Below are positions 7,732 to 32,110 of a stretch of DNA of 36,828 nt, piece by piece; position 1 is the stretch's first letter; each line of letters starts with the position of its first letter. The notes below the pieces were generated by a model. That model saw only the letters and a list, made by a program, of their open reading frames with translations, searched no databases and was not told the origin of the DNA. This DNA comes from Flavipsychrobacter stenotrophus (GTDB lineage: Bacteria; Bacteroidota; Bacteroidia; Chitinophagales; Chitinophagaceae): the NCBI GenBank assembly GCA_945902755.1, contig CAMDNC010000014.1, positions 1-36,828 on the forward strand, in the 5' to 3' direction. The position numbers and the translations under genes are program-made.

Positions 7732-10700
7732 ATGAGAAAAATGTTACCTTTTAATTTGCGTAGTTTCATTTTGGTGTGTTTTGTCTTATTATCCGCATTG
7801 TCTTCAAAGGCGAATCACATTGTTGGTATGGATTTAAGCTATGCTTGGGTGTCGGGCAATACCTACCGCATCACCTTGGTTGCCTATGGCGATTGTGGTG
7901 TGGCTACTCCTGATTTAAGCGTGGCATCCCCACAAATTTGTATTTATAACGGTACTACATCTGTTGGTAACGTCAACCTCACAATAGTACCGCCGTCTAC
8001 AGGTACCGAAATTACACCTGTGTGTCCTGCCAGTATCGGGTCCACTACTTGTTCGGGAGGTACCATACCCGGTGTTAAACGCTATGTGTATTCAGGCACT
8101 TACACCCTACCAACAACATCTAGAAACTGGCGCTTCATTTTTAATGGTAATATGAGTGGTAGCTCCGCTGGTAGGGCTTCTACCATCACCAATACTACAG
8201 GTGTAACGGTTATGCAATTGATAGACTCGCTTGATAATAGATTTGTAAATAACTCAAGTCCGGTACTCACGGTGCCTCCTACACCCTACTTCTGTCTGAA
8301 TAATCCTAACACTTACAACCCTGGTGGGGTGGATCCGGATGGTGACAGTCTGGTATTTACTTTGGTGAGAGGAAGAGTAGCTTCTAGCAACTGCGGTAAC
8401 ATAGGCACAGGAAGTTCTCAAGTTAATTATACTTCAGCGTTCGAGGCATGGCCTGGTACTCCGATTTCTGCTACTACACCATTAAGGGTAGCAACAGGAG
8501 AATTTACGTTCAACTCAACCAATGGTCAGGTAAATTTCAATCCTAATTTCAATCAGGTTGCATTGGTTGTATATAACGTAAAGGAATACAGAGGAGACTC
8601 AGTAGTAGGTACTAGTCAAAGAGAGATGACTTTTTTGGTGCAACCATGTACCGTTACTCCACCTACAGGTGTTATTTCTTCACCTGTCAATGGTGCTATT
8701 ACTGGTCCAACTTCTTTTCAGGTTTGTGCGGGAACTGGTCCGTTTAGTTTTCATATTTTACCAACAAGCCCCGATCCATTACTGAACATCAAAGTAACCG
8801 CGGCAGGTATTCCAGCAGGTGCTACTTTTAATGTAATTAATGATAGTACCCCCAATCCTGATGCAACGTTTTCATGGACTTCTACATCGGTCGCGCCTGG
8901 TTTATACACCATTTTCGTTACAATGAAAGATGATCAGTGTCCTATTTCAGGCACTAATACGATTGCTTATTCTATCACCATCAATTCGCTCGCAGATATT
9001 GCTGGAACTGGTGTTTTGTGTGCGGGAGCCACCACTACACTCACTAATACTACTGCTGGTGGGTCTTGGAGTAGTAGCAACACTGCGATCGCTACCGTGG
9101 GGTCGGGTACAGGAATAGTAACTGGTGTTGCAGGTGGTACTGTAACTATTTCGTATTCTGTAGGAACCTGTTTCAAAACAACAGTTGTAACAGTCAATCC
9201 ACAGCCAACCACCTTTACAGGTTCCTTGGCACTTTGTGTGGGGCTAACTACAACACTCAACTCCACACCAGCAGGCGGAACTTGGACTAGTTCTAACCTT
9301 GCTGTGGCTACTGTAGGAGCTGCAACAGGAGTGGTAACGGGTGTATCGGCAGGTACTGCTGATATCAGCTACACGCTACCTGTAACTGGTTGTGTGAGGG
9401 TAGGTACAGTTACTGTAAACGCATTGCCAGGAACAATAACTGGTACACAAACTGTATGTGTAGGTGCCACTACTACTTTGGCATCAACTCCCGCAGGTGG
9501 TACATGGAGCGAGGCGTCCGCCAATATAACTGTAAATGCAACTACGGGTGTAGTTACAGGTATAGCTGCTGGTACAGCAATAGTTACTTACTCATTGGGT
9601 ACTGGTTGTACAACTACGGCAGTTGTAACTGTTAACCCTTTACCCAATATTATCAATCCAATTCCCCCTACTATTCTTTGTGTAGGCAACACAGCTACAT
9701 TTACCAACACTACACCTGGTGGTACATGGAGCAGTAGTAATACTGCTGTCGCCACCGTTAGTGCTGGTGGATTGGTAACGGCTGTTGCTCCTGGTACCGC
9801 TAATGTTACGTACACTATCTCTGCCACTGGTTGTTTTATCATAAAAGGTGTAACTGTCAATACATCTCCTGCGGCGATAACTCCTGCAAGTGTAGCTGTA
9901 TGTACAGGTAGCTCGGTAACGCTGAGCAATACTGTAACTGGCGGCACATGGAGTAGTAGCAATACAGCCCGTGCCACTGTAGTATCTACTACAGGCGTAG
10001 TGACTGGTGTAGTGGGTGCTACCGCGGGGACGGTGAACATAACTTATGCAATTGGTACTTGTACTGCCATCAGGGAAGTCACAGTAAATGTGACTCCCGG
10101 AGCAATAACAGGCGGCGTAACATCATTGTGTATAGGTGATAATACTACTTGGACAAATGCAGCCCCTGGTGGCACATGGAGCAGTAGCAATGCTGCTGTA
10201 GCTACTGTAACTGCAGGTGGTGTAGTAGCGGGTATATCTTCGGGTACAGCTACGATATCGTATATTATTACAGCTACTGGTTGTTTTGCGACCCGTGTTG
10301 TAACTGTTAATACCACTCCGGCAGCTATCACGCCAGCAAGTGTGGCTGTATGTACCGGTAGCACAGTAACACTTAGCAACACTGTAGCCGGTGGTACTTG
10401 GAGCAGCAGTAATACTGCTCGCGCTACAGTGGTAGCTACTACAGGCGTAGTTACGGGTGTAGTAGGAGCAACAGCAGGTACAGTGAATATAACCTATACA
10501 GTGGGCACTTGTACTGCGGTAAGAGTTGTAACTGTGAATGTGACTCCAGGAGCAATAACCGGTGGCTTAGCATCAATATGCATAGGTGACAATACAACTT
10601 GGACTAACATTACACCAGGTGGTACATGGAGTAGCAGCAATGTGGCTGTAGCTACAGTAACGGCTGGTGGAGTAGTGAACGGCGTAGCTGCCGGTGTAGC

Positions 10701-13700
10701 AACAATCACCTACACCATTACAGCTACTGGCTGTTTTGTAACAAGAACTGTTACGGTCAACACTACTCCTGCTGGTATATCGCCCACACTGGGCAACGTA
10801 TGTGTGGGAACAAGTACTTCGTTTACAAACGCTACACCCGGTGGTACGTGGAGCAGTAGCAACACTGCTATTGCTACAATAGGTAGCGCTACAGGTGTGG
10901 CTACGGGTGTTTCTTTCGGTACTGCAAATATTTCTTATTCTATAGGTAGTTGTTTTGCCGTAGCTACTGTGGTTGTAAATACTACGCCTGCAGCTATTAA
11001 TCCTGCAGGTCCTGTATCTGTGTGTGTGGGCGATGCAACTACACTTACCAATACTACACCCGGTGGAGTATGGAGCAGTAGTACTCCTGCTGTGGCTACC
11101 ATAGGCACTAGTGGTGTTGTAACTGGCGTGTCATTGGGTACAACTACTATTTCTTATACTTTAGGTAGCTGCTCCGTAACCAAAGTTGTTTCTGTTGGGG
11201 TTACTCCTTCGGCTATATTGCCTTCCTCGCCTACTGTATGTGTGGGTGGAGTAGCCACACTTACTAATACTGTGCCTGGTGGAACGTGGAGCAGTGGTAA
11301 TCTTACCATAGCCACTGTAGGCAGCACTACTGGTGTTGTTTCTGGTGTCGCATTAGGTACAGCAGTTATTACGTACTCAATTGGTAGCTGTTTTGCTACT
11401 GCGACAGTTACTGTTATTTCTTTGCCGGCCTCAGGTACTATATCTGGTCCGTCAATAATATGTGTGACAACGACAGGTAGTTACAGTAACGCTACCCCCG
11501 GTGGCGTGTGGAGTACCGTGAATGGTAATGCAAGTATTTCAGCTGCTGGTATAGCTACTGGTGTGTCTGCGGGTATAGACACTATTCGATATTCTGTAAC
11601 AAATGCATGTGGCACATCCGTTGCTTCTTTTGCTGTTACAGTTAATCCATTGTCGAGTGCTGGTACTATTACCGGACCTACATCAGTTTGTGTGTCTGGT
11701 CTCATCACACTTTCGGCTTCAGTGCCCGGTGGTGTGTGGAGCAGTAGCAATACCAATGCTACTGTGGGAAGCATAAGCGGTGTAGTAACAGGCGTATTGC
11801 CAGGGCTAGATACCATAACCTACACAGTAAGTAGTGTGTGTGGCGTAGCATCTGCCAGTCGCATTGTGACTATTAACGCATTACCAACTGCGGGTAGTAT
11901 AACTGGACCAGTTACAGTCTGTGTAGGCGCGACCGTATCAGTATCAGGAACTGTACCTGGTGGCACATGGAGTGTTGCAAATAGTACCGCTACTATTAAC
12001 TCTACGACAGGATTGGTAACTGGTGTAACAGCAGGAACTAATTTTATCACATACACCGTTAGTAATTCGTGCGGAACAGCAACTACTACTCGTGGACTTA
12101 CTGTAAATCCGCTGCCCAATGCAGGTACCATTAGTGGTGCAGATAGTGTATGTATAGCTTCTTCAATAGCTCTTACGGCATCGGTGCCCGGCGGAGTGTG
12201 GAGTGCTGGTAACACCAATGCGACAGTGTCTGGTGTGGGGCTGGTGACTGGTGTTAGTGCAGGCACTGTGCCTATTTCATACACGGTAACGAATGTGTGT
12301 GGAGTGACATCTGCTGTTAAAATCATAACGATAGTAGCTCCACCAGTTTCCGGTACTATATCTGGTCCTGCGGCTGTTTGCTTGGGTTCTGGTATTACAC
12401 TTACAAGTTCATCACCCGGAGGTGTTTGGACATCTAGTAATGCTAATGCTATTGTGTCAGGGCCTGGTATTATAACTGGTGCTGTGGTAGGAACTTCAAT
12501 TATTTCCTACTCTGTTACCAACCTTTGTGGTACAGCTACTAGTACTCGTACTATAACAGTGAATCCTATACCTTCAGTAGCATCTATCACTGGTCCTACT
12601 AGTCATTGTGTAGGTTCAACAATTACACTTGCTAATACTACACCTGGTGGCAATTGGACAAGTAGTGATATGTCTGTGGCAACTGTAGGATTGACTACTG
12701 GTATAGTTAATGGCGTTTCGGCTGGCGTGGTCAACATCACTTATACTGTTACCAATGGTTTTGGATGTCCAGCAAGTGCTATAGCAGTAGACTCAGTATT
12801 GGTGGTGCCAATAGTACCTGCAATAGCTGGTAATCATAATGTATGTTTAGGTGCTACCACTACACTAACAAATGCAGTAGCCGGTGGTACCTGGAGCAGC
12901 AGCAACACTGCAGTTATATCTATCGATGCTGTTGGTGTAGCTACTGGCTTGTCGCTAGGTACTGCTACAATAACATATACTGTGAACAACATATGCGGAA
13001 CTACCGTAGTGACAAGAGTACAAACAGTGGTACCATTGCCAACAGTAGCACCTATTACTGGTACTGCTACACAATGTGTGGGCTTATCTACTACACTTTC
13101 TTCTGCTACCGTTGGTGGTGTTTGGACTTCTGCCGACATTAGCATAGCAACCGCTGGAGCTACTACTGGTGTGATAACTGGTGTTGCTGCTGGAATTGCA
13201 AACATCACCTATACATTTACAGATGCCATAGGCTGTGCTAATTTTGCAACAATTGCCAATACGGTGCAGGCATTGCCGGTGGTAGCGCCAGTTACGGGTA
13301 CAGCATCTGTATGTATTGGTAATTCTACTAATCTTTTCAATGCTACTCCTGCTGGAACGTGGAGCAGCGCAGACACTACTATCGCTACTGTAGGAGCTTC
13401 TACTGGCGTGGTAACAGGTGTTGCTGCTGGTACTAGTACCATTACTTATTCTGTAGCTAACGCATTTGGCTGTATAGGTATTGCTACGATCGAAGCTACT
13501 ATTAATCCATTGCCGGTTGTAGACCCTATAACTGGAACTGCTACTGTGTGTGTAGGTGCAAATACAATATTGTCGTCTACTACAGCCGGTGGTGTATGGA
13601 GCAGCAGTGATGTAGCTATTGCATCAATAGATGCTGTGGGTGATGTAACAGGCATTGCTGCTGGTACTGTAACTATATCTTATGGATTTACTGATGGATT

Positions 13701-15390
13701 GGGTTGTACAGGGTATGCTAGCACCGTTGTAACGGTAAATGCACTACCTGTGGTGCCAGTAATAACTGGTACTGCATCGGTTTGTGTAGGTGCATCTACT
13801 ACACTTAGCAACAGTCTTGCTGGTGGAGCATGGAGCTCTGCCGATATTTCAGTTGCTACAGTTACTACAGCTACAGGTGTGGTAGTTGGTGTAGCAGGGG
13901 GTGTAACTGACATTACTTATACTTATACGGATTTGTTGGGCTGCTCGGGCATTGCCACCACTTCAGTAACAGTAAACGCACTGCCAGTAGTTGCCCCAAT
14001 AACTGGTGTCACTAACGTGTGTGTAGGAGGTACTGCTACCTTGGCGAATGCGACTGCAGGGGGTGTTTGGAGCAGTAGCAACACTGCAATAGCTACAATA
14101 AGCGGTACTGGTACCGTATCAGGCATATCCAGTGGTATCGTTACTATAAGTTATTCGGTTACAGATGGTTTAGGTTGTACAGGCATAGCAACTTCGCCAG
14201 ATACGGTTAATATAGTACCCGTTTCTACTCCTATCACTGGCGTACGTAATATTTGTCTTGGCGGCACCACTGCACTTAGTAGCACCTCCGCTTTTGGTGC
14301 GTGGAGCAGTAGCGATGTATCTGTTGCTACTGTTAGTACTACGGGTATTGTTAGTGGTTTGGCAGCGGGCACTGCTATCATTACTTATTTCGTTAGCAAT
14401 CCTTGTGGATCGGCTACTGATGTAGTTGTTGTAACAGTTAATCCATTACCATCTGCAGGTACTATTACCGCACTTTTTAGCACAGTTTGCGCAGGTGGAG
14501 TAACAAACTTAAGTAGCACGGTGCCGGGCGGTGTATGGAGTAGCAGCGATGTATCTGTAGCAACTGTGGATGCTTCAACTGGCGCAGTAACATCTTTGGT
14601 GCCTGGAACAGCTATTATTACCTATTCTGTTTCGTCTGCTGGATGTTCTGGGTTCTCTACCTATACACTTACAGTAGGGCCAGCCATTCCAGGTTTGGCT
14701 GTACTACCCATAGGTTCATCGTCTTTGTGCAACGGCAATCCGGTGAACATGCATGTGTCGTCACTGACTCCAGGCCTTAGTTACCAGTGGCTAATTGACG
14801 GAAACATAATAGCGGGTGCTACAAACTCGGGGTACGTAACTGACACTGTTGGTTTGTATTCAGTCATTGTAGACAATGGTATTTGTAGCCAAATACTTGC
14901 CGGTCCTAATGTAGTGTTTATGCCACAGCCAGTTGTTGCATTTAATGCACCTAATCTGCTATTCACTGGATCATACGCAACTTATCAGTGGTATCGCAAT
15001 GGTGTAGCTATAGCGGGTGCTAATAGTAGTATACTTACATTGCTTGGTGTAGGTGCATATACAGTTATAGTAGAAGACGCTAATGGTTGCAGAGATACAT
15101 CGGCAGTTTATTACGTAACTGGTGGTGGAGGCGGAGGTTCGTCTAATGTTTCAAATACAAGTATTGCTGAGGTTAAGATATTCCCTAACCCTGCAACAGC
15201 AATGCTTAGCATAGATGCACCAGTAAGTGTGAATGCAATAGTAATGACTATGGACGGCAGAAAAATAATGGAGCACAAAAATGCTACAACAATAGACATC
15301 TCTAAACTATCATCTGGCATGTACATGATAATGGTATATGATGGACAGAATATGCTGTTGAAAACAGCTAAGTTTACTAAGTCTGAATAG
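7732..15390 (+). CDS. Giant T9SS-exported adhesin-like protein with 25 BIG2/Ig-like repeats
   Basis: The 2552-residue protein has a signal peptide (about 1-27, ending SSKA). The mature N-terminus NHIVGMDLSYAW..YRITLVAYGDC resembles the first domain of many gliding-associated Bacteroidota surface proteins. Residues ~28-418 hold that domain and a cadherin/Ig-like segment. Residues 419-2316 are 25 tandem BIG2-like repeats of about 76 residues, each with the core VCVG..TTLTNTTPGGTWSS, ATV..TGVVTGV and GTATITY, plus two conserved cysteines. Two more divergent Ig-like segments follow (YQWLIDG, YQWYRNG), then a Gly6 linker (2464-2469) and a T9SS type A sorting domain (from ~2478: AEVKIFPNP, SSGMYMIMVYDG). 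The likely role is a long surface filament or adhesin; the ligand is unknown. The gene stands alone between a long regulatory region and a terminator. Confidence 0.93.
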   Translation: MRKMLPFNLRSFILVCFVLLSALSSKANHIVGMDLSYAWVSGNTYRITLVAYGDCGVATPDLSVASPQICIYNGTTSVGNVNLTIVPPSTGTEITPVCPASIGSTTCSGGTIPGVKRYVYSGTYTLPTTSRNWRFIFNGNMSGSSAGRASTITNTTGVTVMQLIDSLDNRFVNNSSPVLTVPPTPYFCLNNPNTYNPGGVDPDGDSLVFTLVRGRVASSNCGNIGTGSSQVNYTSAFEAWPGTPISATTPLRVATGEFTFNSTNGQVNFNPNFNQVALVVYNVKEYRGDSVVGTSQREMTFLVQPCTVTPPTGVISSPVNGAITGPTSFQVCAGTGPFSFHILPTSPDPLLNIKVTAAGIPAGATFNVINDSTPNPDATFSWTSTSVAPGLYTIFVTMKDDQCPISGTNTIAYSITINSLADIAGTGVLCAGATTTLTNTTAGGSWSSSNTAIATVGSGTGIVTGVAGGTVTISYSVGTCFKTTVVTVNPQPTTFTGSLALCVGLTTTLNSTPAGGTWTSSNLAVATVGAATGVVTGVSAGTADISYTLPVTGCVRVGTVTVNALPGTITGTQTVCVGATTTLASTPAGGTWSEASANITVNATTGVVTGIAAGTAIVTYSLGTGCTTTAVVTVNPLPNIINPIPPTILCVGNTATFTNTTPGGTWSSSNTAVATVSAGGLVTAVAPGTANVTYTISATGCFIIKGVTVNTSPAAITPASVAVCTGSSVTLSNTVTGGTWSSSNTARATVVSTTGVVTGVVGATAGTVNITYAIGTCTAIREVTVNVTPGAITGGVTSLCIGDNTTWTNAAPGGTWSSSNAAVATVTAGGVVAGISSGTATISYIITATGCFATRVVTVNTTPAAITPASVAVCTGSTVTLSNTVAGGTWSSSNTARATVVATTGVVTGVVGATAGTVNITYTVGTCTAVRVVTVNVTPGAITGGLASICIGDNTTWTNITPGGTWSSSNVAVATVTAGGVVNGVAAGVATITYTITATGCFVTRTVTVNTTPAGISPTLGNVCVGTSTSFTNATPGGTWSSSNTAIATIGSATGVATGVSFGTANISYSIGSCFAVATVVVNTTPAAINPAGPVSVCVGDATTLTNTTPGGVWSSSTPAVATIGTSGVVTGVSLGTTTISYTLGSCSVTKVVSVGVTPSAILPSSPTVCVGGVATLTNTVPGGTWSSGNLTIATVGSTTGVVSGVALGTAVITYSIGSCFATATVTVISLPASGTISGPSIICVTTTGSYSNATPGGVWSTVNGNASISAAGIATGVSAGIDTIRYSVTNACGTSVASFAVTVNPLSSAGTITGPTSVCVSGLITLSASVPGGVWSSSNTNATVGSISGVVTGVLPGLDTITYTVSSVCGVASASRIVTINALPTAGSITGPVTVCVGATVSVSGTVPGGTWSVANSTATINSTTGLVTGVTAGTNFITYTVSNSCGTATTTRGLTVNPLPNAGTISGADSVCIASSIALTASVPGGVWSAGNTNATVSGVGLVTGVSAGTVPISYTVTNVCGVTSAVKIITIVAPPVSGTISGPAAVCLGSGITLTSSSPGGVWTSSNANAIVSGPGIITGAVVGTSIISYSVTNLCGTATSTRTITVNPIPSVASITGPTSHCVGSTITLANTTPGGNWTSSDMSVATVGLTTGIVNGVSAGVVNITYTVTNGFGCPASAIAVDSVLVVPIVPAIAGNHNVCLGATTTLTNAVAGGTWSSSNTAVISIDAVGVATGLSLGTATITYTVNNICGTTVVTRVQTVVPLPTVAPITGTATQCVGLSTTLSSATVGGVWTSADISIATAGATTGVITGVAAGIANITYTFTDAIGCANFATIANTVQALPVVAPVTGTASVCIGNSTNLFNATPAGTWSSADTTIATVGASTGVVTGVAAGTSTITYSVANAFGCIGIATIEATINPLPVVDPITGTATVCVGANTILSSTTAGGVWSSSDVAIASIDAVGDVTGIAAGTVTISYGFTDGLGCTGYASTVVTVNALPVVPVITGTASVCVGASTTLSNSLAGGAWSSADISVATVTTATGVVVGVAGGVTDITYTYTDLLGCSGIATTSVTVNALPVVAPITGVTNVCVGGTATLANATAGGVWSSSNTAIATISGTGTVSGISSGIVTISYSVTDGLGCTGIATSPDTVNIVPVSTPITGVRNICLGGTTALSSTSAFGAWSSSDVSVATVSTTGIVSGLAAGTAIITYFVSNPCGSATDVVVVTVNPLPSAGTITALFSTVCAGGVTNLSSTVPGGVWSSSDVSVATVDASTGAVTSLVPGTAIITYSVSSAGCSGFSTYTLTVGPAIPGLAVLPIGSSSLCNGNPVNMHVSSLTPGLSYQWLIDGNIIAGATNSGYVTDTVGLYSVIVDNGICSQILAGPNVVFMPQPVVAFNAPNLLFTGSYATYQWYRNGVAIAGANSSILTLLGVGAYTVIVEDANGCRDTSAVYYVTGGGGGGSSNVSNTSIAEVKIFPNPATAMLSIDAPVSVNAIVMTMDGRKIMEHKNATTIDISKLSSGMYMIMVYDGQNMLLKTAKFTKSE
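9862..10311 (+). repeat. Copy 1 of a 450-bp two-domain tandem duplication (repeats 5-6)
   Basis: Encodes a pair beginning TSPAAITPASVAVC and VTPGAITGG. The next 450 bp encode a near-identical pair of exactly the same length, with identical domain boundaries. Confidence 0.85.
10312..10761 (+). repeat. Copy 2 of the 450-bp two-domain tandem duplication (repeats 7-8)
   Basis: Encodes the pair beginning TTPAAITPASVAVC and VTPGAITGG. The protein closely matches copy 1, but most differing codons are synonymous changes. Confidence 0.85.
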
Positions 15391-20630: not shown

Positions 20631-21269
20631 CTATTTCAAAAATGGGTTGTGCTTTTTTTCGTCGCCGATAGTAGTCGCTGGTCCATGCCCTGATAATACA
20701 ATAGTGTTGTCGGGCAAGGTAAACAGGTGGGTGCGTATCGATTCAATAAGTGTATCAAAGTTGCCACCCGGTAGGTCAGTTCTGCCTATGCTGCCATTAA
20801 ATAATACATCACCTGCTATTACCCAGTTGCCTTCGGCATTATAAAATGATACGCTGCCGGGTGAGTGACCTGGTGTAAGAAACACCATGATTTCATCATC
20901 TCCCAATTTCATTTTTTTTCCATCTTCTATAAAGAAGTTGGAAGTAGGTAAATCTTTAAACTGCAACCCAAACATAGCAGCTGTATCCGCACCTCGTTTC
21001 AAGATGGGCAGCTCCTTCTCATGTATGCCGAAAGGAATAGCATACTTATCTACAACTGCTTGCACTCCAAAAATATGGTCGAGATGACCATGAGTATTGA
21101 TGACAGCCTGTGGTATAAGTTGATTTTTTTCGATAAACGAAATAAACTCGTTTGTTTCACGTTGTTCATACATTCCGGGATCTACAATCCAGCATTCTTT
21201 TTTATGATTGCTAATGATATAGGTGTTTTCCTGAAATGCGTTGAAGGTGAAAAAATGAATATTTAACAT
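20631..21269 (-). CDS. MBL-fold metallo-hydrolase (glyoxalase II-like)
   Basis: The 212-residue protein has the metallo-beta-lactamase motifs: T-H-x-H-x-D-H at 59-65 (THGHLDH), H135 in TPGHSPGS, D154 in AGDVLF and H195 in SGHGPATT. Small single-domain members of this group hydrolyse thioesters such as acylglutathione analogues or act as general esterases; substrate cannot be read. The frame can be extended 18 residues to 21323, but the -7 box at 21303-21310 lies inside that extension, and MLNIHFFTFNAFQENTY at 21269 is the family-like N-terminus. It converges tightly with the plug-like gene. Confidence 0.9.
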   Translation of the reverse strand: MLNIHFFTFNAFQENTYIISNHKKECWIVDPGMYEQRETNEFISFIEKNQLIPQAVINTHGHLDHIFGVQAVVDKYAIPFGIHEKELPILKRGADTAAMFGLQFKDLPTSNFFIEDGKKMKLGDDEIMVFLTPGHSPGSVSFYNAEGNWVIAGDVLFNGSIGRTDLPGGNFDTLIESIRTHLFTLPDNTIVLSGHGPATTIGDEKKHNPFLK

Positions 21270-21302
21270 GTCGGAGTGGTATAATTTCTTTAATTTGTAT
21301 AG

Positions 21303-21310
21303 CAAATGTA
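21303..21310 (-). promoter_or_regulatory. Putative -7 box of the MBL-fold gene
   Basis: TACATTTG on the minus strand matches TAnnTTTG and lies 33 nt upstream of the chosen start. TTTG is 16 nt further upstream, shorter than usual. Confidence 0.5.
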
Positions 21311-21416
21311 GCAAATTAGCCATTCACAAAAGATGTGGTGGTGGTGGTGCTTGCAAAATGGCTCGTTTTTTGTAGTAATAATCTATAAATGAGTTGGATA
21401 AAAAAGAGTTGAATAC

Positions 21417-24400
21417 ATGAGCATATCTAGAGGCTTGAGGGGTTTGGTTTTGTCGCTTTGTACGGCGACATTAGCAGTTTTTATGCCATTGTTTTCGTTT
21501 GCCCAGTCTAACATAGAACAGTTTGGGCAAAACAGAATTCAAGACCGAAAATTTGCCTGGAAGTTTTTTGATACCCGTCACTTCAGAGTATATCATTATG
21601 ACAAAGCTGGTAGGCAACTTGGCAGATATGTCGCTGAGGAGGCTGAGTATGACATCGCTGTAGTTGAAAAAAAACTTGGTGGGGCGTTTCCATCAAGGTT
21701 CAATATTATATTGTACAACTCATACGATGAATACCGTCAGTCTAATGTAGGGCTTAAAGAAGAATCTCCATTATTAGGTAACTCTAGAGCGGGGTCGTTG
21801 AAAATTGTTGATGATAAATTGGTCGTATATTTTACCGGAGATCATGCCGACCTGCGTAGACAAATTCGCTCAGGTATGGCTCTCGTGGTCATGCAACGAA
21901 TGATTTTTGGCGACAATCTGAAGAAGATGGTGAAAAATGCTTTATTACTCAATTTACCAGACTGGGTAACTGCGGGGTACATAGCTTTTTTGGTAGATGG
22001 CTGGGACGAAAAGAGTAACAGCGAATGGAAAGGAATACTTGACGCAAATCCCAAAAAAGGTTTTTACGAACTAGCTGAGTTACATCCTGAGCTTGGAGGG
22101 AAAGCATTTTGGAAATTTGTTGCTAATCAATATGGTCCCAATACCGTAAAAACACTTCTGTATGGTATGCAGCAAAAGTCAGGTCTTAATAAGGCGATGA
22201 AAGATCCTACTAACCTAAACATGAAAGTCACTAAAGCCTACGATTCTTGCATTAGATACTACAGAAACGTATATGTATTAGACGAAAAGAAGCAAGATAA
22301 ACCTGACAGTACTAATGGTAGAATTACTATCAAAGTACCCAAAGATAACAGCGTGCTGCGCCACATAGTAGTGTCGCCTAGTGGCAGAGACATAAGTTAT
22401 GTGGCATGGAAAGACGGTTTGTATACCGTATACATGCAAAAAACCACTGGCAGTCAAACAATTTCTAAATTGCTTGAGGGTGGGCAAAAAGACCTTACCG
22501 ATCAGATTGACCCTAGCTATCCTATGTTGGCATGGTCTAAAAGTGGCGACAAACTGGCCATACTATATCGTGCCGGATCCACTACTTTGTTGCGCATTTA
22601 TAATAACAACAGAGGCAGAATAGAAAACTATAAAATACCCAAAAACCGTTTCGACCGAGTGCTTTCAATGGCATTTATGGAGGATGATAAAAACCTCGTT
22701 TTTTCTGCTATCCGTAAGAGCCAGACAGATCTTTACATGTTTTCTATCAGAGGTACCAAGATGACCAACATCACAGACGATGTGTGGGATGATCTTTCCC
22801 CTGAGTTTATTAGTGGTGGATCTCGCACAGGTATCCTCTTCTTATCTAACAGGCCCAAACCTAACATTGATGTACCTGTTAGGGTAAATGAACTTCCTGC
22901 AGGTCCAACTAATTTGTTTTTTTACAACACCAAAACATTGCAGAAGGAATTGATACAATGCACTGATGTAAAAAAAGGTCGCATTACGCAGCCTGTTCAA
23001 TATGGTCCTGATAATTTCGCTTACCTCCATGATAGCAATGGTATCAATAATAAATACGTAGTTCTGTTTACCCGAAATAAAAATAACCTTGATTCTGCAT
23101 ATTCTATGCCAGTTACCAACTATAGTACTAGTGTGGTGAAGCATCAATATAGCCCATCGACAGGTGAGGTAACAGATGTAGTGCAGCTGAAAGATAAGTA
23201 CATTGTTTACTACCACAATGCTCACATGCCTGGCGACAGTGCTGCAGCTAGGTCTATTTCGCCTACGATATTATCTGCAGAGCGCTTAGAGCCAGAGATT
23301 GTAGTGCCAGCAGCAAGTAAAAATTCTGCTATCGTAAGAGATCCTTCAGGAATTGTGCGCTACGACCAGCCTGTGCGCACGCAGATAAAAGGGGGTAACG
23401 TTTTTCAATCAGAGTTCTCTGATAACGAAACTCAGCCGAAAGTAGGTTTTGGAACACTGGATACATCCACGCTGATAAAAGACGAACCTGTTGCGGCGCA
23501 GCCAGACGATAGCACTGTGCTCACTGTTATTACTGACAGTGCTTATCTCAAAATGAAGCCAGCAGCTTACAGAAACAGCTTTAAACCCGACTTTTTATCT
23601 GTAAAGCTAGATAATACTATACTTTTCAATCAATATCAGTCAATTGCTGCTAACGGAGGTCAATTTGTTAATCCATCCTTGGCCGCTCTCACTACCTTGT
23701 CGCTCAATGAATTGATGGAAGATCACCGATTTACTGCTGGCTTTCAGTTGCCAGTTTCAGGTGCCAATTCTACTTATTTTTTACAATATCAGAATTTTAA
23801 AAGAAGAGTAGATTGGGGAATTCTCTTTTTGCGCTCTCAAAACAAAGAGTATAAAGATGTAGGATATGTAGATCGCAACAATGTATTGCTATTTGTAAAG
23901 CAACAATTGTTTAAAACTACTACTCACATGGCTAAGTTTGAGCTCAGTAGGCCAATTGATCGTTTGCGCAGCGTGCGTTTCAATACATTGGTACGAGAAG
24001 ATAGATTCGTGCAAAAGGTAATTGATACATTAAGTCTGGCGCTCGACTTCTCCAACACATCCTCTTACACATCTATGAGCAGATTAGAGTTTGTGTTCGA
24101 CAATACAATTACGCCTGCACTCAACATCATGAATGGTACTCGTTACAAGGTTTACGCTGAGTATTTCGCTGGTCTCAACAATGGTAATCGTAGTTGTTAC
24201 AACATAGGCCTTGATTTTCGCCATTATCAGAAACTGCACAAAAACTTCATTTTGGCCAATAGGGTAGCTTATGCCCACTCTGACGGTAGCAGCATGGTGC
24301 AATATCTTATGGGTGGGGTAGACAACTGGATGTTTCCTCAAAACAGTGCCAATGCCAATCAAGCACCTGCCGATCATTTTGGCTTTCAGATGTTAGCTAC

Positions 24401-24812
24401 TTCGTTGCGTGGCTACAATCAGTACGCTCGCACCGGCAACAACTTCGGAGTTGTATCTACCGAACTTCGTTTGCCAGTTGTTACCACTTTTGTTAAGCGA
24501 CCAGTACAGTCGCCCATGCTCAAAAACTTACAATTGGTAGCATTTGTAGATGCCGGAACTGCTTGGAAGGGATTTTTACCAGATGCTGGTAATCTTTCAA
24601 ATACGTATGTCTTCCCAAATTTTGGCAACCCTCAGGGGTTGAATAACGTGGCGCTTAGTCTTACAGTGCCCAATAGCGGAGGTTTGGCCGTAGGGTATGG
24701 TGCTGGTCTCAGAACATCATTGTCGGGCTATTTTGTTAGGCTGGATGCTGCTTGGAATATTGAAGGCAAACCTACACCTATAGTCTATTTTGCTTTAGGC
24801 ACAGATTTCTAA
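21417..24812 (+). CDS. Surface protein: inactive peptidase-like domain, TolB-like propeller, Omp85-like barrel
   Basis: The 1131-residue protein has a signal peptide (1-30, ending FSFAQ). Residues ~45-260 resemble the MA-clan gluzincin domain of Bacteroidota exported proteins (FDTRHFRVYHYD, then DLRRQIRSGMALVVMQRM at ~146-162 and LPDWVTAGYIAFL at 180-192). The expected HExxH and the later Glu are replaced (S152, G153, L156, A186). A TolB/DPP-IV-like propeller follows (about 310-640: HIVVSPSGRDISYVAWKDG, LAWSKSGDKLAILYR, DDLSPEF). The last ~400 residues form a BamA-like barrel with GYGAGLRTSL and the C-terminal signal YFALGTDF. The likely location is the outer membrane with a surface or periplasmic propeller; function is unknown. 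It is followed 88 bp later by the O-antigen ligase-like gene. Confidence 0.85.
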   Translation: MSISRGLRGLVLSLCTATLAVFMPLFSFAQSNIEQFGQNRIQDRKFAWKFFDTRHFRVYHYDKAGRQLGRYVAEEAEYDIAVVEKKLGGAFPSRFNIILYNSYDEYRQSNVGLKEESPLLGNSRAGSLKIVDDKLVVYFTGDHADLRRQIRSGMALVVMQRMIFGDNLKKMVKNALLLNLPDWVTAGYIAFLVDGWDEKSNSEWKGILDANPKKGFYELAELHPELGGKAFWKFVANQYGPNTVKTLLYGMQQKSGLNKAMKDPTNLNMKVTKAYDSCIRYYRNVYVLDEKKQDKPDSTNGRITIKVPKDNSVLRHIVVSPSGRDISYVAWKDGLYTVYMQKTTGSQTISKLLEGGQKDLTDQIDPSYPMLAWSKSGDKLAILYRAGSTTLLRIYNNNRGRIENYKIPKNRFDRVLSMAFMEDDKNLVFSAIRKSQTDLYMFSIRGTKMTNITDDVWDDLSPEFISGGSRTGILFLSNRPKPNIDVPVRVNELPAGPTNLFFYNTKTLQKELIQCTDVKKGRITQPVQYGPDNFAYLHDSNGINNKYVVLFTRNKNNLDSAYSMPVTNYSTSVVKHQYSPSTGEVTDVVQLKDKYIVYYHNAHMPGDSAAARSISPTILSAERLEPEIVVPAASKNSAIVRDPSGIVRYDQPVRTQIKGGNVFQSEFSDNETQPKVGFGTLDTSTLIKDEPVAAQPDDSTVLTVITDSAYLKMKPAAYRNSFKPDFLSVKLDNTILFNQYQSIAANGGQFVNPSLAALTTLSLNELMEDHRFTAGFQLPVSGANSTYFLQYQNFKRRVDWGILFLRSQNKEYKDVGYVDRNNVLLFVKQQLFKTTTHMAKFELSRPIDRLRSVRFNTLVREDRFVQKVIDTLSLALDFSNTSSYTSMSRLEFVFDNTITPALNIMNGTRYKVYAEYFAGLNNGNRSCYNIGLDFRHYQKLHKNFILANRVAYAHSDGSSMVQYLMGGVDNWMFPQNSANANQAPADHFGFQMLATSLRGYNQYARTGNNFGVVSTELRLPVVTTFVKRPVQSPMLKNLQLVAFVDAGTAWKGFLPDAGNLSNTYVFPNFGNPQGLNNVALSLTVPNSGGLAVGYGAGLRTSLSGYFVRLDAAWNIEGKPTPIVYFALGTDF

Positions 24813-27921: not shown

Positions 27922-28269
27922 TTATAGGTGCAATTTGCCTTTTTTAGCCAATAACTCATCTACGGTTTCTCTGTACATTTCATCAGGCACGCAGCAGTCT
28001 ACAGGGCATACTGCAGCACATTGTGGCTCTTCATGAAATCCTTGGCATTCCGTACACTTGTTGGCAGTAATGTAGTAGGTGTCTACAGAAAATGGTTGAT
28101 GTGCAGCAGTGGCATCAGTTACAGTTCCGTCCATAAGGGTGTAACTGCCTTTCACCGATGTTCCGTCCGCTATTGCCCATTCTACACCACCTTCATAAAT
28201 TGCATTATTAGGACATTCTGGTTCGCAAGCACCACAATTAATACATTCGTCGGTTATTTTTATTGCCAT
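27922..28269 (-). CDS. Ferredoxin, two [4Fe-4S] clusters (Alvin-like)
   Basis: The 115-residue protein has a first cluster motif C9-x2-C12-x2-C15-x3-C19-P. The second is C72-x2-C75-x8-C84-x3-C88-P, with the x8 loop characteristic of the Allochromatium-type 2[4Fe-4S] ferredoxins. An insertion of about 50 residues separates the motifs, and extra cysteines C92 and C93 follow the second. It is a soluble electron carrier of low potential. The divergent gene is the LuxC-type reductase, a neighbourhood common in Bacteroidota, so ferredoxin could supply or accept electrons in a related process; the link is inference. Confidence 0.94.
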
Positions 28270-28300
28270 AAAACTTTTCTTTTTTACAGATTTTGTTGGT

Positions 28301-28308
28301 CAAAGTTA
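28301..28308 (-). promoter_or_regulatory. Putative -7 box of the ferredoxin gene
   Basis: TAACTTTG followed by ACC on the minus strand sits 31 nt upstream of the start. The same extended box occurs before sod and the M16 peptidase gene. Confidence 0.6.
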
Positions 28309-28365
28309 CAACTTCGCTTCAAATACTGTACCCTAAATTGTACCATATCAAGCATAAGATTTATT

Positions 28366-29367
28366 ATGATAGAAAATGCATTAATCTCCCAAAGAATAGA
28401 CTTACTAGTCAGTGTCGGTGAGTATCTGAAAGCTAACAACGAAGAGTGGCAAAATGCCAAGTTCAGAGCCGCCCAAGCTAACGCTTGGTTTACAGCTGCT
28501 CACATTGACATGGCAGTGGTTAATATAGTTGAGCAATACTTAGACAGAGCAAAACTTACAGAATGGGTAGCCTCGTATCCCATGCCAGCAACCATTCGAA
28601 ATGTGGGTATCATTATGGCAGGTAACATTCCTTTGGTTGGTTTCCATGATTTTTTGTGCGCTTTTATTTGTGGTCATAATCTTCATATCAAGTTGTCATC
28701 AAAAGACGATGTCCTGCAGAGGCATATCATTGAGCAAATGATAAAAACTGATTCTACCTTAGCTGGGAAAATAACTATTGCAGATCGACTAAATGGTTGT
28801 GATGCATACATTGCTACTGGTAGTAATAATACTGCTCGTTATTTCGAACAATATTTTGGTAAGTATCCTAATATCATACGCCAAAATCGTACATCTGTTG
28901 CTATTCTTGATGGTAATGAAACGGATGAGCAGCTGGCATCGTTGGCAGACGATGTCTACCTTTACTACGGACTAGGGTGCAGAAATGTTACGCAGATTTG
29001 TGTGCCTCGCAATTTCGATTTTGCCAGATTGTTAAACGCTTTTGGTAAGTATAATGATTATGCCGACCTCAATAAATACAAAAACAACTACGATTATCAC
29101 TTAGCTATCTATTTACTAAATAGGGTGCCTTATATGAGCAATGAGTCTTTACTGCTCGTTGAGAACGATCTCCCTTTTTCTGCAGTTAGTGTGTTGCACT
29201 ATCGTTATTACGACGATTATCAAACTTTGATTGCGTCGCTATCTGGAAACCAAAATATTCAAGCTATTATAGGGAAAAACTTTTTCCCTTATGGTAGTGC
29301 TCAAAAACCAGCCCTAAATAATTATGCCGATGGGGTAGATACAATGGCATTCCTTACAAGCCTGTAG
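28366..29367 (+). CDS. Acyl-CoA reductase, LuxC-type
   Basis: The 333-residue protein matches the LuxC/aldehyde-dehydrogenase-like acyl-CoA reductase family: an N-terminal helical part, GIIMAGNIPLVGFHDFLCAF (81-100), the HIKLSSKD segment (107-114), and the catalytic Cys in YYGLGCRNVTQI (C205). It would reduce acyl-CoA to fatty aldehyde with NADPH. An in-frame ATG at 28021 lies inside the ferredoxin gene and adds a non-homologous leader, so I start at 28366. There are no lux genes nearby. It is divergent from the ferredoxin gene, with 96 bp between starts. Confidence 0.9.
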   Translation: MIENALISQRIDLLVSVGEYLKANNEEWQNAKFRAAQANAWFTAAHIDMAVVNIVEQYLDRAKLTEWVASYPMPATIRNVGIIMAGNIPLVGFHDFLCAFICGHNLHIKLSSKDDVLQRHIIEQMIKTDSTLAGKITIADRLNGCDAYIATGSNNTARYFEQYFGKYPNIIRQNRTSVAILDGNETDEQLASLADDVYLYYGLGCRNVTQICVPRNFDFARLLNAFGKYNDYADLNKYKNNYDYHLAIYLLNRVPYMSNESLLLVENDLPFSAVSVLHYRYYDDYQTLIASLSGNQNIQAIIGKNFFPYGSAQKPALNNYADGVDTMAFLTSL

Positions 29368-29458: not shown

Positions 29459-32110
29459 TTATCTTAGCAATGTAACGTTGCCCTGTTTACGCAGAATTTT
29501 GCCTTTATCAGTTACTGCTTCTGCTTCGTATACGTATACCCCTAAAGGTTGAGATACGCCACCAATATTTCCATCCCATCCGTCGGTTATATCATCGCTT
29601 TCATACACCAAATTACCCCATCTGTTGTATATCCTAAAATAACGCAAACGGGCAATGCCATTCAGTATTACTTTCAGTTTGCCATTCACAGAAGAACTTG
29701 GAGCAAAAGCATTGGGAACAGAAATAATGGAGTTTTCATTTACTCTAATGCTAATTGAATCGATAGCCTTACATCCATCTTCTGTACGGGCTGTTACTAT
29801 ATATTTTGTACTAACAGGTGGGTTCGCAACAGGATTGGATACGGATGTGTCTGACAGTCCTACTGGTGGAGCCCATGAGTAATAGTTACAGTTGGAAACC
29901 GGAGAGATCTGATAGGTTTCACCGGGGAACAGTACTACGGAGTCTGTTATTGTAATTACAGCAGCCGGATTTACTTTTATTGAATACGACAGCGTGTCTT
30001 TACATCCGAACATACTTGTGGCAATAATATCATAATTTATATTGGTTATTGGTTTGATAGTAGGTGTTGCTGAGAATGCATCATTGATGTAAGTAGCCGG
30101 ATACCATGAGTAAAAAGTAGTGCCAGGTTCGGTGGATAACGGGAACAAAGTTACAGAATCTCCAGGGCAAACCGTCGTGTCCGTTCCCATAAAGGCAAAG
30201 TTACCGTTGTACTTAAATATTATTATGGAGTCGGCACTAGTACAGCCTGCTGGAGTAGTCACTATCAATACTAGTTTTGTAGTGTCTCCTGCAGTGAAAA
30301 TGACACTTGGAGCCGTTGAATCATCAAGGAAAGTGCCTGGGGTCCAGTCGTAAATGTAATTCGTGTACCACCCCGGCGACACAATCGGAGTTATCTTTAT
30401 CGTGTCAAATTCACAAATGTTTCTGTAACCTCCCATATTCACAATTGGAGTAGGTTGTACGTCGATATAGAAAGAGTCTCTTGCTACACAAGACAAAATC
30501 GTTGCATTTACTACGTACCATGCAGATGTATCTGGTGTTATAAGCGGAGTAGGAATGGTAGATACAGGCATACCTGTCGTTGGTGTCCATTGGTAGGTTA
30601 TTGCTGGGTCAAATGATGATATTGCTGTTACTGAGGCTCCTTTGCATATTGCAGTGTCATTACTCAAAACGGTAACAGTGTCATACACTATCGTGATGTT
30701 TACCGTGTCTGCATCTTTACAACTGTTGTCAGTCACTTCAAGCCAATAAGTACCCGATGCAGTCACATTCAGGGTCGGAGTACTGGTTATTCCGTCGCTC
30801 CAAACATATACTGGTGCTGTATAAGGCGTGTCAAGCGAAGAAAGCAATACTGACCCACCCTGACACAATAGAGTATCGCTGCGCAATCTTACGCTTGTGG
30901 GTGGTACTACTAATACCGAAACGGTATCAAAAGCGATACATCTGCCTGATAAACTATCAACTACTACTGAGTAAATTCCTGTTACGCCTACTTTTATTGT
31001 AGAAGTTGTATCGCCTGTACTCCACAGATATTCGGAAACAGCATTAGGTACAGAATTTAGTTGTAATGAGTCGCCCGAACAAAATATGGTATCATTGCCA
31101 AGGTCTACTTTAGGTATAATGTGGCGTATCGTAACGGCTCTATTTGTAGGGCAAGAATAAAGCTTTTCAATGGTCAATGAGCGCGTAGAATCGGGAGTAA
31201 CAATACCATTTGGGAAGTTGATTGTTATTCTTGATTTCGTAGTGTCACCAGTGCTCCATGTGTATTTATATCCGCCTGCAAAAAACTGTTTGTTAGGATA
31301 TTGTGTTGTATCTAATCCTGCACCCGTACCTCCACCACCAATATTCACTACGTTTTCGCATACTGCAGTATCTACGCCGAGGGTAAACAGTATGTTTGGG
31401 TTAAAATCACGTAGCCTTAATACTTCAGGATTGTTTACCTGACGGCTGTAAATGGCAACATCGTCAATTCTGCCAGTAAATGCTCTCGCGTTTGAGGTAA
31501 AATCATATCCCAGTTGAAATACTGTTGTAGGTGATGCAAATCCTGGCGCTGTGGCAGGGATGTAGCTGCCTACATTAACACCATCCACAAAAAACACATA
31601 ACCATTACCCACTCTGCGCAGTAACAAATGATGCCACTGGTTGATTGTTATGGGGGTTGCTAATTGTTGATCTGTTCCGTTGAGCAAAATAGAAACACTG
31701 TTTCCAGGCCCTCCACCAAAAGTACCATCGTTCATCACTATTCCTAATCCATTTACAGTAGGATTACCATTGTAAAGGATGATTGCATCTTGAATGGCAG
31801 TGGGGTATATGTGGCAAGAATAAGTAAACTCACTCACTCCAAATACAGGTATGGGAAAGAAGGTAGAATAGTGCATTTCACTATTTACTCCATTAAAACT
31901 GTATGCCCTATTAGGACGACCAAAACGGTCCGTGGCAGGCGTAAGGTTGGCGCCAGTTAAGTCATATCCAGCAAACGTTCTGTCTACTAGATCTGCTCCA
32001 CTACAAAAAGGATACCATGCATCAAGATTGCCCGTAGGTAGCGTTATCGCCTGCCCGAACAAGTCATGGATACATAAGAATATGGCTATGGTAAATAAAA
32101 ATCTCTTCAT
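29459..32110 (-). CDS. LamG and Ig-like repeat protein with T9SS type B (gliding-motility-associated) sorting domain
   Basis: The 883-residue protein has a signal peptide (MKRFLFTIAIFLCIHDLFGQ). Residues ~25-235 form a LamG/concanavalin-like domain (AYSFNGVNSEM, NQWHHLLLRRVGNGYVFFVDG, GRIDDVAIYSRQV). About seven Ig/PKD-like domains follow (to ~792), each with a C.GDS or C.GAS start, a YxW core and a later Cys. The last ~90 residues (from NSIISVPNAFAPS) form the type B sorting domain with FRIYNRWGNLVYES and DGWDGNIGG. By family knowledge such proteins leave through T9SS and may be cell-attached. Carbohydrate or adhesive binding by LamG is inference. The promoter is at 32125-32156. Confidence 0.92.
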   Translation of the reverse strand: MKRFLFTIAIFLCIHDLFGQAITLPTGNLDAWYPFCSGADLVDRTFAGYDLTGANLTPATDRFGRPNRAYSFNGVNSEMHYSTFFPIPVFGVSEFTYSCHIYPTAIQDAIILYNGNPTVNGLGIVMNDGTFGGGPGNSVSILLNGTDQQLATPITINQWHHLLLRRVGNGYVFFVDGVNVGSYIPATAPGFASPTTVFQLGYDFTSNARAFTGRIDDVAIYSRQVNNPEVLRLRDFNPNILFTLGVDTAVCENVVNIGGGGTGAGLDTTQYPNKQFFAGGYKYTWSTGDTTKSRITINFPNGIVTPDSTRSLTIEKLYSCPTNRAVTIRHIIPKVDLGNDTIFCSGDSLQLNSVPNAVSEYLWSTGDTTSTIKVGVTGIYSVVVDSLSGRCIAFDTVSVLVVPPTSVRLRSDTLLCQGGSVLLSSLDTPYTAPVYVWSDGITSTPTLNVTASGTYWLEVTDNSCKDADTVNITIVYDTVTVLSNDTAICKGASVTAISSFDPAITYQWTPTTGMPVSTIPTPLITPDTSAWYVVNATILSCVARDSFYIDVQPTPIVNMGGYRNICEFDTIKITPIVSPGWYTNYIYDWTPGTFLDDSTAPSVIFTAGDTTKLVLIVTTPAGCTSADSIIIFKYNGNFAFMGTDTTVCPGDSVTLFPLSTEPGTTFYSWYPATYINDAFSATPTIKPITNINYDIIATSMFGCKDTLSYSIKVNPAAVITITDSVVLFPGETYQISPVSNCNYYSWAPPVGLSDTSVSNPVANPPVSTKYIVTARTEDGCKAIDSISIRVNENSIISVPNAFAPSSSVNGKLKVILNGIARLRYFRIYNRWGNLVYESDDITDGWDGNIGGVSQPLGVYVYEAEAVTDKGKILRKQGNVTLLR

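What the first reader, a model, noticed from the sequence alone, without database searches (positions are those of the whole stretch)
21417..24812. Zinc-ligand-less peptidase domain fused to a propeller and an Omp85-like barrel
RSGMALV stands where RHELAHV-type sequence is expected, and PDWVTAGY where a W-x-x-E-G is expected, so all three zinc ligands appear lost. A dead peptidase plus a TolB-like propeller on a barrel would be a binding scaffold rather than a protease. The role of the family is unknown.
Basis: partly seen in the sequence, partly recalled or inferred. Interest (0 to 1): 0.5.

Follow-up and report, generated by a model that had tools for sequence, protein, structure and literature searches.

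The report
Dead peptidase on an Omp85 barrel
This bacterial outer-membrane protein carries a peptidase-shaped domain that has lost its zinc site across its class of Bacteroidota but not in sister classes, and in several families its gene sits beside type IX secretion genes, so it probably works as a docking scaffold and not as a protease.

Summary
Observation confirmed. The 1131-aa protein at 21417-24812 is a signal peptide, a gluzincin-fold domain, a TolB-type propeller and an Omp85 barrel. S152, G153, L156 and A186 replace the zinc-site H, E, H and E. A model built from zinc-less sequences only still matches M9, M30 and M1 gluzincins.

The loss is no isolated mutation. In the trees all zinc-less rows lie on one side of one branch and come from the window's class. 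In 35 of 35 homologues from other classes the site is intact; an intact paralogue survives in part of the class. The zinc-less domain is under strong purifying selection.

New leads: an MBL-fold gene lies head to head with it in 71 of 79 named relatives. [quoted passage not shown] one locus reads as a tight porU-porV-mbl-omp operon. Among active relatives, half the loci have RNase R, often with a TamB-like gene, directly upstream.

Best reading: a non-proteolytic outer-membrane docking or assembly factor, T9SS-linked in part of Bacteroidia. Function is inferred; genomes with PorV but without this protein show that T9SS does not require it. The architecture resembles published WD40-Omp85/OMP-TolB proteins.

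The parts
21417..24812 (+). Whole gene: pseudo-gluzincin / TolB-type propeller / Omp85 barrel protein, 1131 aa
   Evidence: ORF list; full-length homologues; model pLDDT 81.5, pTM 0.79
21417..21506 (+). Probable Sec signal peptide (residues 1-30, ...FSFAQ), no lipobox Cys
   Evidence: My reading of the sequence and helix 6-21 in the model; no signal-peptide program was run
21504..22304 (+). Gluzincin-fold domain without zinc site (residues 30-296)
   Evidence: hhalign to intact set E 5.6e-56; model pLDDT 85; Foldseek and VIA-align to gluzincins
21843..21908 (+). Helix 143-164, equivalent of the HExxH helix; RSGMALV at 21867-21887
   Evidence: G153 kept in 60 of 61 rows, R151 in 55, A155 in 54
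21957..21980 (+). PDWVTAGY, equivalent of W-x-x-E-G with the third zinc ligand replaced by A186
   Evidence: P181, W183, G187 kept in 61 of 61 rows
22302..23231 (+). TolB-type beta-propeller, about six blades (residues 296-605)
   Evidence: TolB Z 21.7, rmsd 2.9 over 241 residues, model range 296-582; strands
23232..23561 (+). Low-confidence, fast-evolving linker (residues 606-715)
   Evidence: pLDDT under 50 at 624-709; dN/dS 0.207 and 0.052, highest of the regions
23562..24809 (+). Omp85 barrel (residues 716-1131), LRGY loop motif at 24405-24416, C-terminal Phe
   Evidence: BamA Z 25.9, TamA Z 22.5; PF01103 37.7 bits; R998, G999, F1131 invariant in A1
20631..21323 (-). Head-to-head MBL-fold hydrolase gene, 93 bases away
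   Evidence: Pfam Lactamase_B 107.6 bits; conserved arrangement

Best explanation
Shown by computation: an outer-membrane Omp85-type protein with a TolB-type propeller and a gluzincin-fold domain that lacks the zinc site in a clade spread over the window's class, while homologues in other classes keep it. Inferred: it works without proteolysis. Propeller and former peptidase cleft form a periplasmic docking platform that holds a client or partner next to the Omp85 barrel, which helps fold or deliver it at the outer membrane. Inferred less firmly: in part of the class the clients belong to the type IX secretion pathway (PorV barrel, PorU or cargo), because the gene travels with porU, porV and an MBL-fold gene. 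The ancestor was probably an active peptidase working with a TamB-like bridge.
For: Architecture and fold. Homology to intact Peptidase_MA_2 proteins. Class-wide loss with one change of state on the tree. Purifying selection on the zinc-less domain. porU-porV-MBL-omp block in 7 of 7 loci read from families f100 and f110 and in named loci L154, L188, L190; variant order in 6 genomes of f27 and f28. MBL-fold neighbour in 27 of 29 genus and 71 of 79 named loci. RNase R upstream in 7 of 14 and a TamB-like gene before it in 5 of 14 outgroup loci.
Against: No experiment. 25 of 29 class genomes without a match still have PorV, so T9SS does not need it. In the window's own genome porU-porV lie on another contig. 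Outgroup loci show no porU/porV nearby. Loci for the porU/porV check were mostly picked after proximity was seen. The side of the membrane is assumed. The PF19572 family also hits outgroup genomes, so presence of PorV tells little by itself.
Confidence: 0.5

Rival explanations
1. General outer-membrane assembly factor of the WD40-Omp85 kind (a BamA-BamB-like or TamA-like fusion), unrelated to type IX secretion; porU/porV and MBL neighbours are inherited gene order only.
For: Omp85 barrel and propeller; TamB-like neighbour in 5 of 14 outgroup loci; the WD40-Omp85 proposal in section 10 of PMC4104836.
Against: porU/porV lie in the same block in several families and in two different orders, which plain inheritance of one order does not fully explain.
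Confidence: 0.33
2. PlpD-like (type Vd) display: the barrel moves the N-terminal part to the surface, where the dead domain and propeller act as adhesin or binding protein.
For: Fusion of an enzyme-like domain to an Omp85 barrel, as discussed for PlpD in PMC4104836 section 10.
Against: TolB-like propellers are periplasmic in the known cases (recalled); no test of topology was made here.
Confidence: 0.07
3. The domain still catalyses something with other residues in the old cleft.
For: R151, G153, A155 conserved; D or E often at the third-ligand place (44 D and 12 E of 80 named).
Against: Both His and the catalytic Glu positions lost and partly variable; no new constant metal-ligand set at these places.
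Confidence: 0.08
4. Isolated mutation or decaying gene.
For: One genus locus (L004) has an in-frame stop.
Against: Class-wide loss in open frames and strong purifying selection.
Confidence: 0.02

Closest known systems
WD40-Omp85 subfamily (Heinz and Lithgow 2014, PMC4104836, section 10 read)
   Same: Omp85 barrel preceded by a TolB-like propeller
   Different: That section names no peptidase-like domain in this subfamily and no T9SS link; their member lists (supplements) could not be opened, so identity is not proven
OMP-TolB-like proteins (PMC12204202, section 9 read)
   Same: Outer-membrane proteins with a six-bladed TolB-like periplasmic propeller and an adjacent domain, often annotated TolB
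   Different: Their adjacent domain is called a Rossmann fold; here it is a gluzincin fold. Whether these are the same proteins is open
Peptidase_MA_2 (PF13485) / gluzincins (M9, M30, M1)
   Same: Fold and homology of the N-terminal domain; outgroup relatives match PF13485 above cut-off
   Different: Both His, the catalytic Glu and in this copy the third Glu are replaced
TamA/TamL-TamB module
   Same: Omp85 barrel; outgroup loci with a TamB-like gene upstream
   Different: No POTRA domain seen in the model; in class Bacteroidia loci read here no TamB neighbour was found
PorE and other T9SS envelope proteins
   Same: TolB-like propeller in Bacteroidota linked to T9SS (passages of PMC12204202)
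   Different: PorE is described as an OM lipoprotein with CpoB-, TolB-, carboxypeptidase- and Pal-like parts, without an Omp85 barrel

Membership tests
Omp85 superfamily | Omp85-type barrel | tested here: met
   Z 25.9 to BamA, 22.5 to TamA; PF01103 37.7 bits, cut-off 24
WD40-Omp85 subfamily | Propeller N-terminal to the barrel | tested here: met
   TolB Z 21.7 at residues 296-582
WD40-Omp85 subfamily | Clusters with the published members | not testable with these tools
   Supplementary lists not available (0 look-ups allowed)
BamA / TamA | POTRA domains before the barrel | tested here: inconclusive
   Model shows gluzincin fold, propeller and a disordered linker there; no POTRA-specific search was run
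Gluzincin peptidase | Gluzincin fold | tested here: met
   Foldseek 1.3e-4 to collagenase T; Z 14.3 M9, 13.1 M30, 12.7 M1; hhalign to intact set
Gluzincin peptidase | HExxH plus third Glu ligand | tested here: not met
   S152, G153, L156, A186
TolB | NCBIfam TolB equivalog cut-off | tested here: not met
   24.5 bits against 343.15
T9SS component | Genes in the T9SS neighbourhood | tested here: met
   porU-porV block in several families, but not in the window's own genome
T9SS component | Present wherever T9SS is present | tested here: not met
   25 of 29 class genomes without a match have PorV
T9SS component | Needed for secretion or bound to PorU/PorV | not testable with these tools
   Needs experiment

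The most novel reading that the evidence does not exclude
An unrecognised accessory factor of the type IX secretion pathway: a former TamB-linked membrane peptidase whose catalytic site was lost early in class Bacteroidia as it joined the porU-porV neighbourhood, turning a protease into an Omp85 docking and assembly platform for PorV, PorU or CTD cargo.
Probability: 0.3. Interest if true: 0.72.

Novelty: new variant of a known kind. Interest (0 to 1): 0.52.

Why it matters
It gives a protein with no Pfam match a fold, a history and a testable role; an N-domain profile of the family (both paralogues) hits 168 of 197 genomes sampled from the class. It is a clean natural experiment on enzyme-to-scaffold conversion, with intact homologues still present, and it points to a possible helper of type IX secretion. 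It may also bear on the OMP-TolB-like proteins proposed as the source of TolB.

Tried and rejected
Tried without gain: phmmer of the whole protein against PDB sequences (0 hits); a profile of the zinc-less domain against PDB sequences gave 26 weak hits, best E 0.036, mostly annexin A2 constructs, taken as chance; Pfam on the window protein. The full-model Foldseek list was filled by BamA.

Considered and rejected: isolated mutation or pseudogene; core T9SS component (families f23 and f24 have PorV and no strong match here); PorV co-occurrence as proof. Among 'same phylum' genomes the strong hits are the same handles as the PorV-positive rows (compared by eye), but the negatives listed there all belong to family f36 and 49 more negatives are not shown. 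G327 lacks both; G061 lacks PorV and its one match is the intact paralogue.

Corrections and dropped rows: one search counted the site one column off; redone. In one search the longest ORF of L091 and L098 was antisense; fixed. One search read 24 of 30 loci; one search read all 30. L004 (in-frame stop) was left out of the genus site counts (29 of 30 loci). Loci cut short by the search (L062, L064-L067, L071, L072, L079, L080) and L001 (a copy of the window) were left out of the tree set; near-copies were left out of the tree (86 of 95 rows). One search used loci of 4.5 kb or more. Trees are quick searches (SH-aLRT only); one search warns of long branches (L047, L262, L247).

Full report
WHAT IS THERE. 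The window holds a complete ORF, 21417-24812 (+), of 1131 aa. It begins with a hydrophobic stretch ending in FSFAQ that I read as a Sec signal peptide (no program was run). Pfam gives nothing at E<=1, NCBIfam only sub-cut-off Omp85 and TolB matches. A genome search with PF01103 hits the barrel above the curated cut-off (37.7 vs 24 bits) and finds two further Omp85 matches in the same assembly.

STRUCTURE. AlphaFold2 on 61 aligned zinc-less sequences gave pLDDT 81.5 and pTM 0.79. Residues 723-1131 match BamA (Z 25.9) and TamA (Z 22.5); residues 296-582 match TolB (Z 21.7, rmsd 2.9 over 241 residues). The strand list shows about six blades and about sixteen barrel strands (my reading). A separate model of residues 30-296, again from zinc-less sequences and without templates, has pLDDT 85. 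Its best solved matches are gluzincins: collagenase T (Foldseek E 1.3e-4), M9 collagenases (Z up to 14.3), M30 lugdulysin (13.1), M1 aminopeptidase N (12.7). The tool warns that Z under about 13 can be a common arrangement for helical folds, so the sequence homology below matters more.

THE SITE. Homologues from other classes of the phylum align over the full length and read IHHELVHAV ... PLWFNEG where the window reads IRSGMALVV ... PDWVTAG. Profiles of the two N-terminal sets match with probability 100 and E 5.6e-56 over 257 columns. Five of five outgroup N-domains tested hit PF13485 Peptidase_MA_2 at E 4.9e-18 to 3.2e-13, above cut-off and over nearly the whole profile; the window's domain does not. 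So S152, G153, L156 and A186 stand for His, Glu, His and Glu.

HOW GENERAL IS THE LOSS. Rows examined: other classes 35 of 35 intact at all four places; order-level rows of this clade 0 of 36 intact (Gly at the catalytic Glu in 34); named relatives 0 of 80 (Gly in 78); genus loci 0 of 29 (Gly in 29); other orders of the class 0 of 12, with mixed residues (one keeps the first His, one the Glu). Two further paralogues in one genome (L047, L048) are also zinc-less. One search adds 30 of 30 and 10 of 10 class-level loci without the site. Exceptions in the class are eight loci of a separate intact paralogue with HELVH or HEMVH (L049, L050, L251-L256): blastp puts L251-L256 closest to L049/L050 among the 95 proteins compared. 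On a tree built without the site columns the state changes once; a second tree gives three groups, each one side of a branch with support 99-100: intact outgroup, intact paralogue, zinc-less. The trees are unrooted quick searches; that the change ran from intact to zinc-less is inferred from the match to Peptidase_MA_2.

DISTRIBUTION. A full-length profile hit 240 of 296 genomes of the phylum at E<=0.001, some weakly; an N-domain profile hit 168 of 197 genomes of the class, both paralogues together. Families f23 and f24 show no strong match. Of the same genus 33 of 35 genomes (own included) had a match. Named hits are mostly Chitinophagaceae, Saprospiraceae and other Chitinophagales, with two Bacteroidales assemblies.

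CONSTRAINT. Only two genus pairs had dS under 1.2. The peptidase-like domain has dN/dS 0.026 and 0.005, the pseudo-site stretch 0.009 in both, the linker 0.207 and 0.052; several regional dS values are near or above 1, so the ratios are rough. Among 61 rows R151, G153 and A155 are kept in 55, 60 and 54, and P181, W183 and G187 in all. The domain is maintained, not decaying.

NEIGHBOURS. An MBL-fold gene (20631-21323, -) lies head to head, 93 bases away. In one search this holds within 600 bases in 27 of 29 genus loci (the other two hold 543 and 0 bases upstream) and in 71 of 79 named loci (six of the other eight have no such gene in that place although 3.5-6 kb upstream were read, one has it at 922 bases, one holds only 251 bases upstream). 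In six class-level 16-kb loci it is present in five, four of these at 1.2-1.5 kb with an FAD-oxidoreductase gene between; in 14 outgroup loci of 12-17 kb it is absent. In families f100 and f110, 7 of 7 loci read have porU-porV-MBL-omp; six were chosen because PorV lay near, the seventh (L278) was not. In L272 and L273 all four are codirectional; in L273 the gaps between first-ATG ORFs are 57, 8 and 31 bases. Named loci L154, L188 and L190 have the same block. In f27 and f28 (six distinct genomes read; L220 ends before porV) the order is porV-porU-pssA-MBL, then divergently FADox-omp. In L277 porU/porV lie 13 kb off. PorU was identified in L219 by NCBIfam NF033707 (1331.6 bits) and PorV by PF19572, elsewhere by tblastn. 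In seven genomes without the gene, porU-porV has no such MBL gene beside it (L283-L288, L291; L291 holds under 1 kb on one side); in the window's own genome porU-porV lie on contig C41 without it (L289). I saw the proximity by comparing coordinates by eye: 13 of 168 positive class genomes within about 8 kb, plus G384 on fetching. The lists are cut, so this is a lower bound and not a designed test. A Cytophaga hutchinsonii paper notes porU, porV and then a gene annotated as a zinc protease (passages of PMC8564354); whether that relates to this block I could not tell.

OUTGROUP NEIGHBOURS. RNase R lies directly upstream in 7 of 14 outgroup loci, and a TamB-like gene before it in 5: L201 (PF04357 E 9.7e-36), L210 (NCBIfam TamB E 1.1e-19 but below its cut-off) and BLAST kin in L207 (partial), L209 and L213. 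In L209 the three genes are codirectional with gaps of a few bases and about 40 bases. No porU/porV was found in these loci.

MECHANISM. Shown: architecture, homology, class-wide loss, constraint, linkage. Inferred: a periplasmic docking platform (propeller plus former cleft) next to an Omp85 barrel that helps assemble or deliver outer-membrane or secreted proteins; a T9SS role in part of Bacteroidia; an ancestral active protease with a TamB-like partner. Against a T9SS role: 25 of 29 class genomes without a match still carry PorV. For a one-way dependence: of the five PorV-negative class genomes, four (G288, G296, G374, G464) have no match, and G061 has only the intact paralogue; G327 of the window's family lacks both. 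These are few events.

LITERATURE. Read: section 10 of PMC4104836 and passages; section 9 of PMC12204202 and passages; passages of PMC12611786 (outline), PMC12045153, PMC4494059, PMC8564354 and PMC10202324. WD40-Omp85 and OMP-TolB-like proteins are published. My searches (open-licence PMC only, listings of at most 20 papers each) showed no title or abstract on the gluzincin domain, its class-wide loss or the porU/porV linkage; subscription papers and supplements were not searched.

VERDICT. Observation confirmed; interpretation supported and extended. New variant of a known kind: the architecture is close to published families, the class-wide loss with intact kin and the T9SS-gene linkage are what is new here.

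Noticed in passing
window 7732-15390 (+): 2552-aa ORF with Big_2 Ig-like repeats and a T9SS type A sorting tail at its C-terminus: a probable giant T9SS cargo 6 kb upstream of the finding.
   Followed up: partly
window 29459-32110 (-): 883-aa ORF with a sub-cut-off match to the T9SS type B sorting domain (26.3 vs 35 bits).
   Followed up: no
window 28021-29367 (+): 448-aa ORF with a marginal match to LuxC acyl-CoA reductase (E 3.9e-5, 23.2 vs cut-off 21 bits); nothing in NCBIfam.
   Followed up: no
L049, L050, L251-L256: A separate paralogue within the class with intact HExxH and W-x-x-E-G; L049 and L050 also match PD40 strongly.
   Followed up: partly
L047 and L048 (G035 contig C5): Two further, very divergent zinc-less paralogues on one contig of a same-family genome.
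   Followed up: no
L201, L207, L209, L210, L213: TamB-like gene, RNase R gene and the intact peptidase-propeller-Omp85 gene in a row, codirectional, in other classes of the phylum.
   Followed up: partly
L217, L219, L220, L279-L282: Phosphatidylserine-synthase-like gene (CDP-OH_P_transf in L219) between the MBL gene and porU in families f27 and f28.
   Followed up: no
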